From the NCBI RefSeq assembly GCF_007830055.1, contig NZ_VLLE01000003.1:868001-932000 (forward strand): DNA of 64,000 nt, read 5' to 3'. Below are positions 24,836 to 30,092 of this stretch, piece after piece. The DNA is from Lacibacter cauensis (GTDB taxonomy: Bacteria > Bacteroidota > Bacteroidia > Chitinophagales > Chitinophagaceae). A program made the translations under genes and the position numbers. Each line of letters opens with the position of its first letter. The first letter of the stretch is position 1. Below the pieces are notes generated by a model that searched no databases, was not told where the DNA came from, and was given only the letters and a program-made list of their open reading frames with translations.

Positions 24836-27800
24836 ATGGAAGCAACAACCAACCTTGCAGTAACTGCAGAACCAGCGCAAAAGAACAAAGCTGTTTACGA
24901 AGTAATGGATGGCAATGAGGCCGCCGCTTACATTGCCTATAAGTGCAATGAAGTGTGCGCTATTTATCCCATCACTCCTTCTTCCACTATGGGCGAGTGG
25001 GCCGATGAGTGGAGTGCCAAAGGCATGAAGAATATTTTCGGCACGGTTCCCCGCATTATGGAAATGCAGAGTGAAGCAGGTGCAGCAGGTGCCATACACG
25101 GAGCGTTACAAGGCGGTGCTTTGGCATCCACCTTTACGGCATCGCAGGGGTTGCTGCTCATGATTCCCAACATGTTTAAAATTGCCGGTGAGTTAACGCC
25201 AACGGTATTTCATATTGCTGCACGTAGTTTAGCAACACATGCGCTTTCAATCTTCGGCGATCATAGTGATGTGATGGCAGTACGATCAACAGGTTTTGCG
25301 ATGTTGTTCGGCAACAATCCGCAGGAAGTAATGGATATGGCGTTGATTGCACAGGCATCTACCTTGCGTTCAAGAGTTCCTTTCCTTAATATTTTTGATG
25401 GCTTCCGTACTTCGCATGAGTTGAATGAAGTTGAAGTAATCCCTGATGAAATCATTGAACGCATGATGGATATGGAAGCCATTCATGCACACCGTAACCG
25501 TGCATTGAATCCGAACAATCCTTCGATACGTGGTACTGCACAAAATCCTGATGTGTATTTCCAGAACAGGGAAGCAGCCAATACGTATCATGCAAATGTG
25601 CCGAACACAGTACAAACAGTGATGGATGAATTTGCAGTTTTAACCGGACGTAAATATAAATTGTACGAATACTATGGTCATGCGCATCCCGATCGTGTAG
25701 TTGTATTGATGGGCTCTGCTGCAGGCGCTGTAAAAGAAACCGTTGATTATCTGAACGCACATGGTGCACATGTAGGTATGATTGCTGTTCGCTTGTTCCG
25801 TCCGCTGGATGTGGAAGCTTTTATGGAAGCATTGCCAAAGAGTGTGGTGAGTATTGCCGTGCTCGACCGTTGTAAAGAACCCAACGGTATTGGTGAGCCA
25901 TTGTACATGAATGTGGTGAATGCGTTGAACGAAGCGCAGGAAAATCATCATGCACATGTAATTGGCGGACGATATGGTTTATCGAGCAAAGAGTTTACAC
26001 CGGCGATGGTAAAAGCTGTTTTCCGTGAGTTGAAAAAAGAACATCCGAAAAATCACTTTACCATCGGTATTGATGATGATGTTACACATACAAGTTTGGA
26101 ATACGATAAAACATTTCACCTGGAAGAGCAACACCAGTTCCGTGGATTGTTCTTTGGTTTGGGTGCCGATGGTACAGTGAGTGCCAATAAAAACTCCATC
26201 AAAATCATTGGCGATAAAACCGATGATCATGTGCAGGGTTACTTCGTATATGATTCAAAAAAATCTGGTTCATTAACGGTGTCGCATCTGCGTTTTGGTA
26301 AGAACCCCATTCAATCAACTTACCTGGTACAGTCTGCAAACTTTGTGGCCTGTCATCATTTCAACTATTTAACCAAGTACGATATTTTAAAAGATGCAGA
26401 ACCGGGCGCAGTGTTCCTCTTAAATGCTCCGTATGAAAAAGAAGAGTTGTGGAGTAAGCTGCCCAAGAAAATTCAGGAAGAAATTGTACATAAAAAATTA
26501 AAGTTCTATGCCATCAATGCGTACACCGTAGCAAAGGATGCAGGCATGGGTAACCGTATCAATACCATTCTGCAAACCTGTTTCTTCGCCATCAGCAATG
26601 TATTGCCACGTGAAGAAGCCATTGCAAAAATTAAAGAAGCCATTTACGATACCTATTGGAAAAAGGGTGAAGCGGTTGTACAAAAGAACTACGATGCCGT
26701 TGATCAAACCTTGGCCAATTTGTACGAAGTGGATTATGCACAATATGCCATTGGCGATAAACCAATTGATGCGCCTGTACCCGATGCAGCCCCTGATTTT
26801 GTAAAACAGGTGTTGGGTAAAATTATTGCCGGTGAAGGTGATGAATTACCCGTGAGTGCATTTCCTGTTGATGGCACCTTCCCAAGCGGAACAACCAAAT
26901 GGGAGAAACGAAATATTGCAGATGCAGTTCCTGTTTGGGATACATCGTTGTGTACACAGTGTGGTAAATGTTTTATGATTTGTCCGCATGCAGCGATTCG
27001 TCCAAAAGTGTATGACAAAGCATTGCTGGCTGATGCACCCGATGGTTGGAAACATGTTGACCCGATTGGTAAAGAGTGGAACAAAGAAACAGAAGCCTAC
27101 ACCTTACAGGTATCAACAGAAGATTGTACCGGTTGTACATTGTGTGTGGAGTTCTGCCCGATTACGAGCAAAACAGATCCCGGTCATAAAGCCATCAACA
27201 TGATGGATAAAACAGATATCCAGGAACAGGAAAAAGAAAACTGGGATTATTTCTTAACGCTGCCCGAAGTTGATCGTACAAGAGTGAACAAGAATACGGT
27301 GAAGGGTTCACAATTCTTCCAGCCGTTGTTTGAGTTCAGCGGTGCATGTGCCGGTTGCGGTGAAACACCGTACATTAAACTCTTAACACAATTGTTTGGT
27401 GAGCGAATGATTGTTGCGAATGCAACAGGTTGTTCATCCATCTTTGGTGGTAACTTACCAACTACGCCTTGGACAAAAAACAAAGAAGGTGTGGGTCCGG
27501 CATGGGCAAACAGTTTGTTTGAAGACAATGCAGAGTTTGGTTTAGGTATCAGCATGGCCAGCAATAAGAAAAAAGAAATGGCTTTGCAGTTGCTCGATGA
27601 ATTGCGTCCGATGATTGGTGAAGAGCTGGCTGATAAGATCATCAATAACAACGGCACAACCGAAGCTGAGCTTGCAGAAAAACATGAGCTGGTAAAACAA
27701 TTGAAAAACAGGTTGAGCCATGAACGTTCCATGGCTGCATTAAATCTGTTCCACCTGGCAGATTTCTTAGAAGAAAAATCAATCTGGATTGTTGGTGGTG

Positions 27801-28411
27801 ATGGTTGGGCGTATGATATTGGTTACGGTGGGTTGGATCATATCCTCAGCACCGGTGAAAATGTCAACATCATGGTATTGGATACTGAAGTGTACAGCAA
27901 TACCGGCGGACAAAAATCAAAATCAACACCAATTGGTGCAAGTGCGAAGTTTAGTGTAAATGGTAAGACAGCTGGTAAGAAAGATTTGGCGATGCAGGCC
28001 ATTGCACACGGCACAGCGTATGTTGCACAGATAGCTATGGGTGGTAATGATATGCATACGATCAGAACGATTCTTGAAGCAGAAGCGTATCCCGGTCCAT
28101 CGTTGATCATTGCCTACAGTCATTGTATTGCCCACGGTATTGATATGGCACATGGTGCAGAAGAACAGGACTTCGCCGTGAAGAGTGGTTACTGGCCATT
28201 GTTCCACTACAATCCGCTGAAACCAAAAGGCGAACGCTTTGTGGTTGATTCAAAAGATCCATCGTTACCATTGAGTGAATTCATGTACCATGAAAACCGT
28301 TTCAATGTCATTAAAGCAAAAGATCCTGCACTGGCTGCACGCTTCCTTGAAACAGCAGAAGAGTTGAAAGAGGGCAAGTGGCACCGTTTGCAAACATTGA
28401 AAGGATTGTAA
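24836..28411 (+). CDS. nifJ: Pyruvate:ferredoxin (flavodoxin) oxidoreductase
   Basis: Oxidises pyruvate with CoA to acetyl-CoA and CO2, reducing ferredoxin or flavodoxin. The 1191-residue single chain has all domains: the N-terminal pyruvate-binding domain (CAIYPITPSSTMGEWADEW, about 42-60), a transketolase-like region, two [4Fe-4S] motifs (CTQCGKCFMICP about 705-716, CTGCTLCVEFCP about 764-775), the CAGCGETP motif near 838 that binds the third cluster, and the TPP-binding GGDGWAYDIGYGG near 983. All cysteines are present. It lies in the same window as a complex I without its NADH module and is a plausible source of its reduced ferredoxin. A bidirectional terminator follows. Confidence 0.96.
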   Translation: MEATTNLAVTAEPAQKNKAVYEVMDGNEAAAYIAYKCNEVCAIYPITPSSTMGEWADEWSAKGMKNIFGTVPRIMEMQSEAGAAGAIHGALQGGALASTFTASQGLLLMIPNMFKIAGELTPTVFHIAARSLATHALSIFGDHSDVMAVRSTGFAMLFGNNPQEVMDMALIAQASTLRSRVPFLNIFDGFRTSHELNEVEVIPDEIIERMMDMEAIHAHRNRALNPNNPSIRGTAQNPDVYFQNREAANTYHANVPNTVQTVMDEFAVLTGRKYKLYEYYGHAHPDRVVVLMGSAAGAVKETVDYLNAHGAHVGMIAVRLFRPLDVEAFMEALPKSVVSIAVLDRCKEPNGIGEPLYMNVVNALNEAQENHHAHVIGGRYGLSSKEFTPAMVKAVFRELKKEHPKNHFTIGIDDDVTHTSLEYDKTFHLEEQHQFRGLFFGLGADGTVSANKNSIKIIGDKTDDHVQGYFVYDSKKSGSLTVSHLRFGKNPIQSTYLVQSANFVACHHFNYLTKYDILKDAEPGAVFLLNAPYEKEELWSKLPKKIQEEIVHKKLKFYAINAYTVAKDAGMGNRINTILQTCFFAISNVLPREEAIAKIKEAIYDTYWKKGEAVVQKNYDAVDQTLANLYEVDYAQYAIGDKPIDAPVPDAAPDFVKQVLGKIIAGEGDELPVSAFPVDGTFPSGTTKWEKRNIADAVPVWDTSLCTQCGKCFMICPHAAIRPKVYDKALLADAPDGWKHVDPIGKEWNKETEAYTLQVSTEDCTGCTLCVEFCPITSKTDPGHKAINMMDKTDIQEQEKENWDYFLTLPEVDRTRVNKNTVKGSQFFQPLFEFSGACAGCGETPYIKLLTQLFGERMIVANATGCSSIFGGNLPTTPWTKNKEGVGPAWANSLFEDNAEFGLGISMASNKKKEMALQLLDELRPMIGEELADKIINNNGTTEAELAEKHELVKQLKNRLSHERSMAALNLFHLADFLEEKSIWIVGGDGWAYDIGYGGLDHILSTGENVNIMVLDTEVYSNTGGQKSKSTPIGASAKFSVNGKTAGKKDLAMQAIAHGTAYVAQIAMGGNDMHTIRTILEAEAYPGPSLIIAYSHCIAHGIDMAHGAEEQDFAVKSGYWPLFHYNPLKPKGERFVVDSKDPSLPLSEFMYHENRFNVIKAKDPALAARFLETAEELKEGKWHRLQTLKGL

Positions 28412-28474: not shown

Positions 28475-29851
28475 TTATTCAACCGGTTTCAGCTTTGCTG
28501 TAAAATGCCTTAGCATCGGTGCTTCTTCTGTTATCACTAATCCTTTTATGTTGTTGCGTTTTGCAAACACTTCAATAATTACTTCGGCCACATAATCAAT
28601 ATGGCTTTGGGTATATACTCTTCTGGGTATTGCAAGGCGTACCAATTCCATTTGTGCAGGAATAAGATTGTTTGTTTCGTCATATTTGCCAAACATCAAC
28701 GAACCGATCTCCACACTACGTATACCAGCTTCGGTATACAACGCACACACCAATGCCTGTCCTGGATATTGTTGTGGCGGAATATGTGGCAGAAAAGCTT
28801 TTGCATCCAGATATACTGCATGTCCGCCGCCCGGCTGCATCACCGGAACACCTGCATCAATTAATTTATTGGTGAGATATTCAATGCTGCGGATGCGGTA
28901 TTGCAGATAAGGTTCTTCAAGCACTTCGTTTAAACCAATAGCAATGGCTTCCAGATCACGACCGGCAAGTCCGCCATAGGTTGGAAAACCTTCTGTAATA
29001 ATGAGCAGGTTGCGGCATTGCATTGCCAGGGCTTCATCTTTCAATGCAAGAAAACCACCGATGTTGGCAAACGCATCTTTCTTGGCACTCATGGTACAAC
29101 CATCCGCATAAGAAAATAATTCGTTGGCAATTTCTTTAATCGATTTATTGGCATAACCTTCTTCACGCAGTTTAATAAAGTAACAGTTCTCTGCAAAGCG
29201 ACAGGCATCAATAAAGAACGGGATATTGTGTGCTGCACAAATTGCTTTCGCTTCTTTAATATTCTGCATGCTCACGGGTTGCCCGCCACCGGAGTTGTTC
29301 GTCACTGTCATGATCACCATCGGAATATTTGCAGCACCAACTCTTTCAATAGTTTGTTTCAACGCATCTACATCCATGTTGCCTTTAAATGCAGCTGGAA
29401 TCGATGGATGTTTTCCTTCTTCGCATAACAGGTCAATTCCTTCTGCTCCGGAGAATTCAATATTCGCTCTTGTTGTATCGAAGAGTGTATTACTGATGAA
29501 ATATTTTCCTTTGCCGCCGGTAATACTGAAGAGAATTTTTTCGGATGCCCGTCCTTGGTGTGTAGGAATAACAATGGGCATACCGGTGATATCACGTACC
29601 GCTTTTTCAAACCGGTAAAAGCTGGGACTGCCTGCATACGATTCATCGCCTTGCATAATGCCCGCCCATTGGCGACTGCTCATAGCACTGGTGCCACTGT
29701 CGGTGAGCAGATCGATGAGTACATGCTCCGAGTTTATTAAGAAGGGATTGTAGCTGGCTTGTTTGAGCAATTCGATGCGTTGTTCAGTTGTTGTGAAATA
29801 AATCGGTTCAACCGATTTTATACGGAAGGGTTCAATAATCGTCTTGATCAT
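28475..29851 (-). CDS. tnaA: Tryptophanase (tryptophan indole-lyase)
   Basis: PLP enzyme that cleaves tryptophan into indole, pyruvate and ammonia. The 458 residues follow E. coli TnaA closely: N-terminal EPFRIKSVEP, LIDLLTDSGTSAMSSRQWAG, IPTHQGRASEKILF, TVTNNSGGGQPVSM, DACRFAENCYFIK, and the Schiff-base lysine in MSAKKDAF (Lys258), then EGFPTYGGLAGRD and a C-terminal RHFTAKLK. The ATG at 29849-29851 gives the family start (IEPFRIKSVEP); an in-frame extension of 26 residues reads the upstream hairpin region and is rejected. The close relative tyrosine phenol-lyase is possible, but the match favours tryptophan. A leader with an interesting short ORF precedes it. Confidence 0.93.
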   Translation of the reverse strand: MIKTIIEPFRIKSVEPIYFTTTEQRIELLKQASYNPFLINSEHVLIDLLTDSGTSAMSSRQWAGIMQGDESYAGSPSFYRFEKAVRDITGMPIVIPTHQGRASEKILFSITGGKGKYFISNTLFDTTRANIEFSGAEGIDLLCEEGKHPSIPAAFKGNMDVDALKQTIERVGAANIPMVIMTVTNNSGGGQPVSMQNIKEAKAICAAHNIPFFIDACRFAENCYFIKLREEGYANKSIKEIANELFSYADGCTMSAKKDAFANIGGFLALKDEALAMQCRNLLIITEGFPTYGGLAGRDLEAIAIGLNEVLEEPYLQYRIRSIEYLTNKLIDAGVPVMQPGGGHAVYLDAKAFLPHIPPQQYPGQALVCALYTEAGIRSVEIGSLMFGKYDETNNLIPAQMELVRLAIPRRVYTQSHIDYVAEVIIEVFAKRNNIKGLVITEEAPMLRHFTAKLKPVE

Positions 29852-29982
29852 AACAGATTGGTTTATACTGTTGCGTTGTACAACAGTTGTATGAATAGAA
29901 GAGTAATGCACTGCAGTAAGCAGCATCATTTAATGTGATAGATAAAAAAGAAAATTGGTTCGGAGCGAACCGGATTGCATCG

Positions 29983-30027
29983 TTATGAAGGACGTCTGAT
30001 AATATTTTTCCAGAGATTGGAAAGCAT
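29983..30027 (-). CDS. Candidate tnaC-like leader peptide
   Basis: A 14-codon ORF plus TAA: M-L-S-N-L-W-K-N-I-I-R-R-P-S. It begins 5 bases after the -7 element and lies about 130 nt before the tnaA start. It has one Trp in the context W-x-N-I and an R-P near the stop. E. coli TnaC has W12-F-N-I and ends R-P. The Trp-to-Pro distance is 7 here and 12 in E. coli, so the ribosome-tunnel geometry would differ. No Shine-Dalgarno is visible, and the transcription start would fall at or near the ATG. Chance cannot be excluded. Confidence 0.35.
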   Translation of the reverse strand: MLSNLWKNIIRRPS

Positions 30028-30031
30028 GTTG

Positions 30032-30039
30032 CAAAGATA
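30032..30039 (-). promoter_or_regulatory. Perfect -7 element before the tnaA leader
   Basis: TATCTTTG on the minus strand, a perfect TAnnTTTG. No -33 TTTG is found at 19-21 bp upstream. Confidence 0.5.
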
Positions 30040-30092
30040 GGAAGAAGGATGAAGCTTCTGCCTGATTTGTTGAACCGGAAGAAAGATTGTGT

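What the first reader, a model, noticed from the sequence alone, without database searches (positions are those of the whole stretch)
29983..30027. Possible tnaC-like leader peptide upstream of tryptophanase
Seen: a 14-codon ORF (M-L-S-N-L-W-K-N-I-I-R-R-P-S) lies on the tnaA strand about 130 nt before its ATG and starts 5 bases after a perfect TATCTTTG -7 element. It holds a single Trp. Established: E. coli TnaC senses tryptophan through W12 and P24 in the ribosome tunnel, with W-F-N-I and a terminal R-P. Inference: W-x-N-I and R-P recur here, although the distance is 7 instead of 12. Two hairpins lie between the ORF and tnaA. No such leader control is known to me for Bacteroidota.
Basis: partly seen in the sequence, partly recalled or inferred. 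Interest (0 to 1): 0.72.

Follow-up and report, generated by a model that had tools for sequence, protein, structure and literature searches.

The report
Tryptophan-sensing leader peptide in Bacteroidota
A tiny peptide, mostly 11 to 14 amino acids long, encoded just before the gene for tryptophan breakdown appears to be a built-in tryptophan sensor, and comparison with relatives suggests that these bacteria evolved the trick separately from E. coli.

Summary
In detail: at 30027-29983 (-) a 14-codon ORF, MLSNLWKNIIRRPS*, ends 131 nt before tnaA. Of 76 distinct upstream regions of tnaA genes at least 71% identical, chosen by tnaA alone, 56 encode a peptide end W-x-x-aliphatic-aliphatic-x-x-P-[S/T]-stop (46 strictly WKNIIxxP[S/T]); 0 of 29 below 71% do; shuffles give 1 in 10,500. 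Conservation is of protein, not DNA. In 294 family genomes the strict DNA pattern occurs 34 times: 32 before tnaA, 2 before a tryptophan 2,3-dioxygenase gene in genomes without a tnaA hit. One peptide before two unrelated Trp-degrading enzymes suggests it senses tryptophan. Often the ATG lies at the predicted transcription start, 41.5 nt from a CRP/FNR-like palindrome. The RNA after the stop is C-rich and G-poor, as at Rho sites. Best reading: Trp stalls the ribosome at the peptide's stop, so transcription continues into tnaA. It works like E. coli TnaC but fails TnaC's residue tests, so it is probably convergent. Ligand, arrest and Rho are inferred; no experiment was possible.

The parts
29983..30027 (-). 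leader peptide ORF, MLSNLWKNIIRRPS*, ATG at the predicted transcription start
   Evidence: homologous ORFs
30032..30039 (-). TATCTTTG, -7 box of the Bacteroidota housekeeping promoter; 4 nt between its G and the ATG
   Evidence: box at -12 to -5 in F. psychrophilum (PMC9723704, passage)
30063..30074 (-). TTCAACAAATCA, at the place (-41.5) where part of the related promoters have the palindrome TGAYN4RTCA; only one half-site is intact here, so possibly a relic
   Evidence: letters; 30 of 65 loci have the palindrome, at this distance from TTTG in 23 of the 24 that also have a TTTG in range
29957..29971 (-). hairpin GGTTCG-CTC-CGAACC followed by a T-rich tail, terminator-like; genus mates L090 and L091 have GGTCT...AGACC at the same place but do not pass the terminator test
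29867..29887 (-). 8-bp hairpin shortly before tnaA; the region is alike in L090 and L091
29852..29982 (-). spacer between leader stop and tnaA; candidate Rho-loading and termination region
   Evidence: composition over 65 loci
28475..29851 (-). tnaA, tryptophanase (458 aa)

Best explanation
The ORF is a cis-acting arrest peptide that senses tryptophan. In this window and in part of the relatives the message starts at or next to its ATG, so a ribosome binds the bare 5' end and makes a short peptide (11-14 residues in 55 of the 60 leaders with an in-frame ATG) ending W-K-N-I-I-x-x-P-[S/T]. When free tryptophan is plentiful it is held in the exit tunnel with help of the peptide's Trp, and release at the stop codon fails; when it is scarce the ribosome leaves. 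The stalled ribosome covers the start of the C-rich, G-poor spacer, keeps Rho off and lets RNA polymerase go on into tnaA (in a few genomes, into a tryptophan 2,3-dioxygenase gene). Well supported by sequence: a short ORF selected at the protein level and tied to Trp-degrading genes, and a promoter that starts at or just before its ATG. Inferred: Trp as ligand, arrest at the stop, Rho as the terminator. In this genus a hairpin 11 nt after the stop could replace or assist Rho.
For: Protein-level selection: 65 leaders less than 80% alike over leader and flanks have per-position identity 0.81, 0.85, 0.49 at codon positions 1, 2, 3 against 0.27-0.33 in flanking 10-nt bins, except 0.48 in the bin just before W; stops are TAA 18, TGA 28, TAG 19; pN/pS 0.26 against 0.89-0.90 in flanks. 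The search pattern fixes W, P, S/T and stop and restricts the two aliphatic places, which also lowers pN; K (54 of 65) and N (59 of 65) were free. Unbiased: 56 of 76 tnaA-chosen regions carry it, 0 of 29 from tnaA below 71% identity; so do the four other tnaA-bearing genomes of the genus. Specificity: 34 strict matches in 294 genomes and 0 for the reversed pattern; 32 before tnaA (28, 4 by the coordinates), 2 before Trp dioxygenase in genomes not among the 69 with a tnaA hit at E <= 1e-100; locus L051 has a further one before Trp dioxygenase. Promoter: TTTG ends 4 or 5 nt before ATG in 22 of 60; palindrome-to-TTTG distance is 37 nt in 23 of 24, which is -41.5 if the box ends at -5. Rho: in the 40 nt after the stop pyrimidines are 0.66 against 0.49-0.51 and C/G 2.1 against 1.12 in 88 control regions, falling to 1.42 in the next 40 nt; Rho is encoded in the genome. 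Logic: a degrading enzyme should be induced by its substrate.
Against: No expression, toeprint or profiling data exist here. 20 of 76 close tnaA loci show no such leader; two loci without it have near variants (L139, L146). None of 70 further dioxygenase upstream regions carries WKNII (30, 40), so the second association rests on three loci, and both family genes tested lie under NCBIfam's dioxygenase cut-off though over Pfam's. G118 has Tyr in place of Trp before a dioxygenase-like gene. Spacers as short as 46 nt leave little room for Rho before tnaA. The C/G bias is not confined to the place after the stop: the last 60 nt before tnaA have 1.96 (partly the same letters in short spacers) and the stretch before the leader 1.42. 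Leaderless starts are uncommon in the phylum (5.5% in F. psychrophilum, about 3.7% with 5' UTR under 10 nt in B. thetaiotaomicron), and another group of leaders has 13-22 nt between box and ATG; 5 of 65 have no in-frame ATG. 6 of the 30 loci with the palindrome have no TTTG in range, and the window's own palindrome is degenerate.
Confidence: 0.67

Rival explanations
1. Same Trp-induced arrest, but the output is an intrinsic terminator: the stalled ribosome at the stop hinders the hairpin 29971-29957 with its U-rich tail.
For: The hairpin is found (2 terminator-like sites in 801 nt, 0.3 expected), folds at -7.3 kcal/mol (z -1.6) and a hairpin with other letters stands at the same place in L090 and L091.
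Against: Only 5 of 69 leader loci pass the terminator test after the stop, 2.3 expected from shuffles, and L090 and L091 do not pass. Its 5' arm starts 14 nt from the first base of the stop, at the edge of a stalled ribosome's footprint (footprint size recalled).
Confidence: 0.13
2. Same arrest, but the stalled ribosome controls translation or stability of the tnaA message rather than its transcription.
For: Spacers as short as 46 nt; a hairpin before tnaA in the window and in part of the other loci.
Against: No hairpin near the tnaA start is general (by eye and fold energies); the C-rich, G-poor bias is what Rho sites show.
Confidence: 0.15
3. Classical starvation attenuator: the ribosome pauses at the Trp codon when charged tRNA-Trp is scarce.
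For: A Trp codon is in the leader.
Against: One Trp codon only; residues after it are conserved as amino acids with free third bases; no general terminator hairpin; the sign is wrong for a degrading enzyme.
Confidence: 0.03
4. Not a regulator of this kind: a conserved DNA or RNA protein-binding site that happens to be open, or a small peptide acting in trans.
For: None specific.
Against: Third codon positions vary, three stop codons alternate, pN/pS 0.26; the N-terminal part is variable; all 35 strict matches stand just before a Trp-degrading gene.
Confidence: 0.02

Closest known systems
TnaC of E. coli (tnaCAB leader peptide)
   Same: Short ORF before tnaA; a single conserved Trp; a conserved Pro near the end; candidate Rho-loading region right after the stop; CRP-type activation of the promoter (recalled for E. 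coli).
   Different: W-P spacing 7 instead of 12; no Asp four residues after Trp; Pro is next to last, Ser or Thr is last; mostly 11-14 residues instead of 24; leaderless start in part of the loci; also before Trp dioxygenase.
trpL-type starvation attenuators (recalled)
   Same: Leader peptide with a Trp codon before a Trp gene.
   Different: Single Trp codon, conserved amino acids after it, no general terminator hairpin, degrading instead of making enzyme.
Sec/YidC arrest peptides, some with RAPP-like ends (PMC10987492 and PMC12992588, search listing and abstract start only)
   Same: Arrest peptides with a patchy spread over phyla; Pro in the C-terminal motif of the RAPP class.
   Different: Those serve protein localization; this peptide is very short and stands before Trp-degrading genes.

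Membership tests
TnaC | short ORF directly upstream of tnaA on the same strand | tested here: met
   56 of 76 tnaA-chosen regions
TnaC | essential Trp (W12) | tested here: met
   single Trp, conserved in the tnaA-chosen loci; W is required by the pattern used; whether it is essential is not tested
TnaC | Asp four residues after Trp (D16; four critical residues listed in PMC10941005, passages) | tested here: not met
   that place is Ile 62 of 65, Leu 3 of 65 (the pattern allowed aliphatic residues only, but the window itself has Ile)
TnaC | Ile seven residues after Trp (I19) | tested here: not met
   that place is the Pro, in the window and by pattern in the rest
TnaC | Pro (P24) as last residue before the stop, 12 after Trp | tested here: not met
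   Pro is next to last and 7 after Trp
TnaC | Rho site immediately after the leader stop (PMC8429421, passage) | tested here: inconclusive
   C-rich, G-poor, pyrimidine-rich spacer against 88 control regions; Rho encoded; binding not tested
TnaC | free L-Trp stalls the ribosome at the stop codon | not testable with these tools
   needs toeprinting or profiling
trpL-type attenuator | tandem Trp codons | tested here: not met
   one Trp codon
trpL-type attenuator | terminator hairpin with alternative antiterminator | tested here: not met
   terminator-like hairpin in 5 of 69 loci, 2.3 expected; alternative pairings were not searched for
tryptophanase (downstream gene) | tryptophanase rather than tyrosine phenol-lyase residues at three places (places recalled) | tested here: met
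   Asp in LFDTT, Ile in VEIG, His in RHF, as in tryptophanase 8sij; phenol-lyase 9j3u has Thr, Arg, Phe there

The most novel reading that the evidence does not exclude
Bacteroidota evolved their own free-tryptophan sensor in the ribosome tunnel: an often leaderless peptide as short as 11 residues whose Trp, eight residues before the last one, makes a Trp-binding geometry different from TnaC's, which has spread to two unrelated Trp-degrading pathways and whose Trp may be exchanged (Tyr in G118) to retune it.
Probability: 0.5. Interest if true: 0.87.

Novelty: new variant of a known kind. Interest (0 to 1): 0.78.

Why it matters
TnaC is the textbook case of a ribosome that reads a small molecule through its nascent chain. 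A second, shorter peptide that fails TnaC's residue tests yet guards the same enzyme, and also another Trp-degrading enzyme, would allow a direct comparison of two solutions to Trp capture in the tunnel, would show nutrient-sensing arrest in a phylum that starts translation largely without Shine-Dalgarno sequences, and would explain how indole production is switched on in many Bacteroidota. The peptide is short enough for toeprinting, synthesis and cryo-EM.

Tried and rejected
Rfam found nothing in the window at gathering scores. A general intrinsic terminator after the stop was tested and not found. A general hairpin at the tnaA start was looked for by eye and fold energy and seen only in part of the loci. 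None of 29 tnaA loci below 71% identity has the leader. A look at Trp-containing short ORFs in 22 loci without the motif gave two near variants, L139 and L146. None of 70 dioxygenase upstream regions has a WKNII leader; these 70 regions come from 69 of the 82 genomes with a dioxygenase hit. An alignment with wrong coordinates for L090 and L091 was replaced. Structure prediction was not used: a 14-residue peptide cannot be judged that way. Counts: one search examined 147 loci with a tnaA hit of at least 55%; 96 had the relaxed leader, 70 of them distinct; L051 was set aside because its leader lies downstream before a dioxygenase (69 left) and 4 near-identical ones were dropped (65). 17 of the 65 carry ids of loci chosen by the leader pattern itself. 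60 of 65 had an in-frame ATG and were used for spacing. Literature: the searches in the held open-access library listed no report of this peptide or of TnaC-like control in Bacteroidota that I could see from titles, abstract starts and passages; one search shows only that no paper holds both WKNII and tryptophanase; subscription papers and preprints are not covered. PMC9723704 mentions leader-peptide attenuation before amino-acid biosynthesis operons in a flavobacterium (passage). TnaC facts come from passages of PMC10941005 and PMC8429421, promoter facts from passages of PMC7366714 and PMC9723704; PMC8537960, PMC4833913 and PMC11301627 were searched for terms only.

Full report
What is there. 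The minus-strand ORF at 30027-29983 reads MLSNLWKNIIRRPS*. Its stop is 131 nt before the likely tnaA start at 29851. TATCTTTG, a perfect -7 box, ends four bases before its ATG. The downstream protein is a tryptophanase: its best solved relative is tryptophanase 8sij, with which it shares Asp, Ile and His at three places where tyrosine phenol-lyase 9j3u has Thr, Arg and Phe (that these places matter is recalled). NCBIfam puts it in the tryptophanase subfamily but below the equivalog cut-offs.

Is the ORF real? I took tnaA relatives without regard to the leader: 80 loci from named genome records, four same-genus loci and 29 more from the family, 113 in all. After removing 6 duplicates and 2 with short upstream sequence, 105 distinct 250-nt upstream regions remained. 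Of the 76 with tnaA at least 71% identical, 56 contain a stretch coding W-x-x-[ILVM]-[ILVM]-x-x-P-[ST]-stop and 46 the strict WKNIIxxP[ST]-stop; of the 29 less similar ones none do; the antisense strands give 0 of 105 and dinucleotide shuffles 1 of 10,500. The four same-genus peptides are MPLYLWKNIIRRPS (twice), MNLWKNIIKKPT and MSIWKNIIRRPS. Counted from the nearest in-frame ATG, 55 of 60 leaders are 11-14 residues long and five are 16-30; 5 of 65 have no in-frame ATG.

Is it selected as protein? Among 65 leaders that are less than 80% alike over 50 nt upstream, the core and 30 nt downstream, identity per site is 0.81, 0.85 and 0.49 at first, second and third codon positions; flanking 10-nt bins lie at 0.27-0.33, except 0.48 in the bin just before W. 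Stop codons are TAA 18, TGA 28, TAG 19. pN/pS is 0.26 in the core and 0.89-0.90 in flanks read as codons. The pattern itself fixes W, P, S/T and the stop and restricts the two aliphatic places, so those counts are not evidence and pN is lowered by it; the free places Lys (54 of 65) and Asn (59 of 65), the third bases and the stop types are evidence.

What does it go with? The strict DNA pattern was sought in 294 genomes of the family: 34 genomes have one match each and the reversed pattern has none. 28 of the 30 matches returned as loci lie 46-178 nt before tnaA on the same strand; the four matches without a locus lie about 60-75 nt before tnaA by the coordinates. The remaining two, in G239 and G300, which are not among the 69 genomes with a tnaA hit at E <= 1e-100, precede a gene with the tryptophan 2,3-dioxygenase domain, over Pfam's cut-off though under NCBIfam's. 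A third case, in L051, lies before a dioxygenase next to an FAD monooxygenase and a tnaA; that this monooxygenase acts on kynurenine is my reading, the nearest NCBIfam model being VioC far below its cut-off. Over the class, 2 of 395 genomes match: the own one and one more, before tnaA, so the strict form is nearly confined to the family. All 35 strict matches of these two scans stand before a Trp-degrading enzyme. Against this, none of 70 other dioxygenase upstream regions has a WKNII leader (30, 40). One of them, in G118, has MKSLYKNIINRPS*, Tyr in place of Trp, 127 nt before the gene.

Where does the message start? In F. psychrophilum the box TAnnTTTG occupies -12 to -5 (PMC9723704, passage). 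In 17 of 60 leaders with an ATG, TTTG ends exactly 4 nt before it and in 5 more 5 nt before it; others cluster at 13-22 nt. Upstream, 30 of 65 loci have the palindrome TGA[CT]N4[AG]TCA, 0.65 expected from shuffles. 24 of these 30 also have a TTTG within 20-60 nt; the palindrome's centre lies 37 nt from the end of TTTG in 23 of them and 38 nt in the other, whatever the distance to the ATG. With the box ending at -5 the centre is at -41.5, the usual place for a CRP/FNR-type activator that touches the polymerase (recalled). This ruler supports a start at the A of the ATG in the leaderless group, to which the window belongs by its box spacing. The window's own copy at that place, TTCAACAAATCA, has only one good half.

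How does it act? In E. coli, TnaC stalls at its stop when Trp is bound and covers a Rho site immediately downstream (PMC8429421, passage). Here the 40 nt after the stop are 66% pyrimidine with C/G 2.1, against 49-51% and 1.12 in 88 upstream regions of other genes in the same loci. C/G is 1.42 in the following 40 nt and also 1.42 before the leader, but 1.96 in the last 60 nt before tnaA, which in short spacers are the same letters. Rho is encoded in the genome. Terminator-like hairpins are not general (5 of 69, 2.3 expected), although the window has one 11 nt after the stop, and its genus mates have a hairpin there that does not pass the terminator test. I therefore prefer Trp-dependent arrest at the stop that blocks Rho, with a local hairpin as possible aid in this genus. 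Ligand, arrest and Rho are inferences.

Is it TnaC? The critical TnaC residues are W12, D16, I19 and P24, the last next to the stop (PMC10941005 and PMC8429421, passages). Here Asp and Ile at those distances are absent, Pro is next to last, and the Trp-Pro distance is 7. By these tests it is not a TnaC, though it is expected to work like one. If the chain is extended, eight residues could reach about as far up the tunnel as TnaC's twelve in helical form; that is a guess to be tested by structure.

Novelty. Eight searches of the held library listed nothing on this peptide. I rate it a new variant of a known kind: a Trp-sensing arrest peptide of separate make-up, in a phylum where, as far as these searches show, none is described.

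Noticed in passing
L206 (G118), ORF 127 nt before a dioxygenase-like gene: Leader MKSLYKNIINRPS* with Tyr in place of the conserved Trp; could be a retuned or decayed sensor.
   Followed up: partly
upstream of the leader in 30 of 65 loci; window 30074-30063 degenerate: CRP/FNR-like palindrome TGAYN4RTCA, 37 nt from the end of the -7 box in 23 of the 24 loci with both; the regulator is unknown.
   Followed up: partly
L095 1477-2856, and 44-49% identical paralogues beside tnaA in other family genomes: A second lyase gene lies directly downstream of tnaA in several genomes; the one tested (L095) is a tyrosine phenol-lyase over the NCBIfam cut-off, so the leader may control both.
   Followed up: partly
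whole window: TAnnTTTG occurs 28 times against 71.7 expected from shuffles: promoter-like boxes seem to be avoided.
   Followed up: no
window 24836-28411 (+): A large pyruvate:ferredoxin oxidoreductase-like gene converges on tnaA; tryptophanase yields pyruvate (annotation by eye, no family search).
   Followed up: no
L139, stop 74 nt before tnaA: Variant leader MNPWKIIQKNIIRKPS*: the KNIIRKPS end is kept but the Trp sits four residues further away, giving a Trp-Pro distance of 11, close to TnaC's 12.
   Followed up: no
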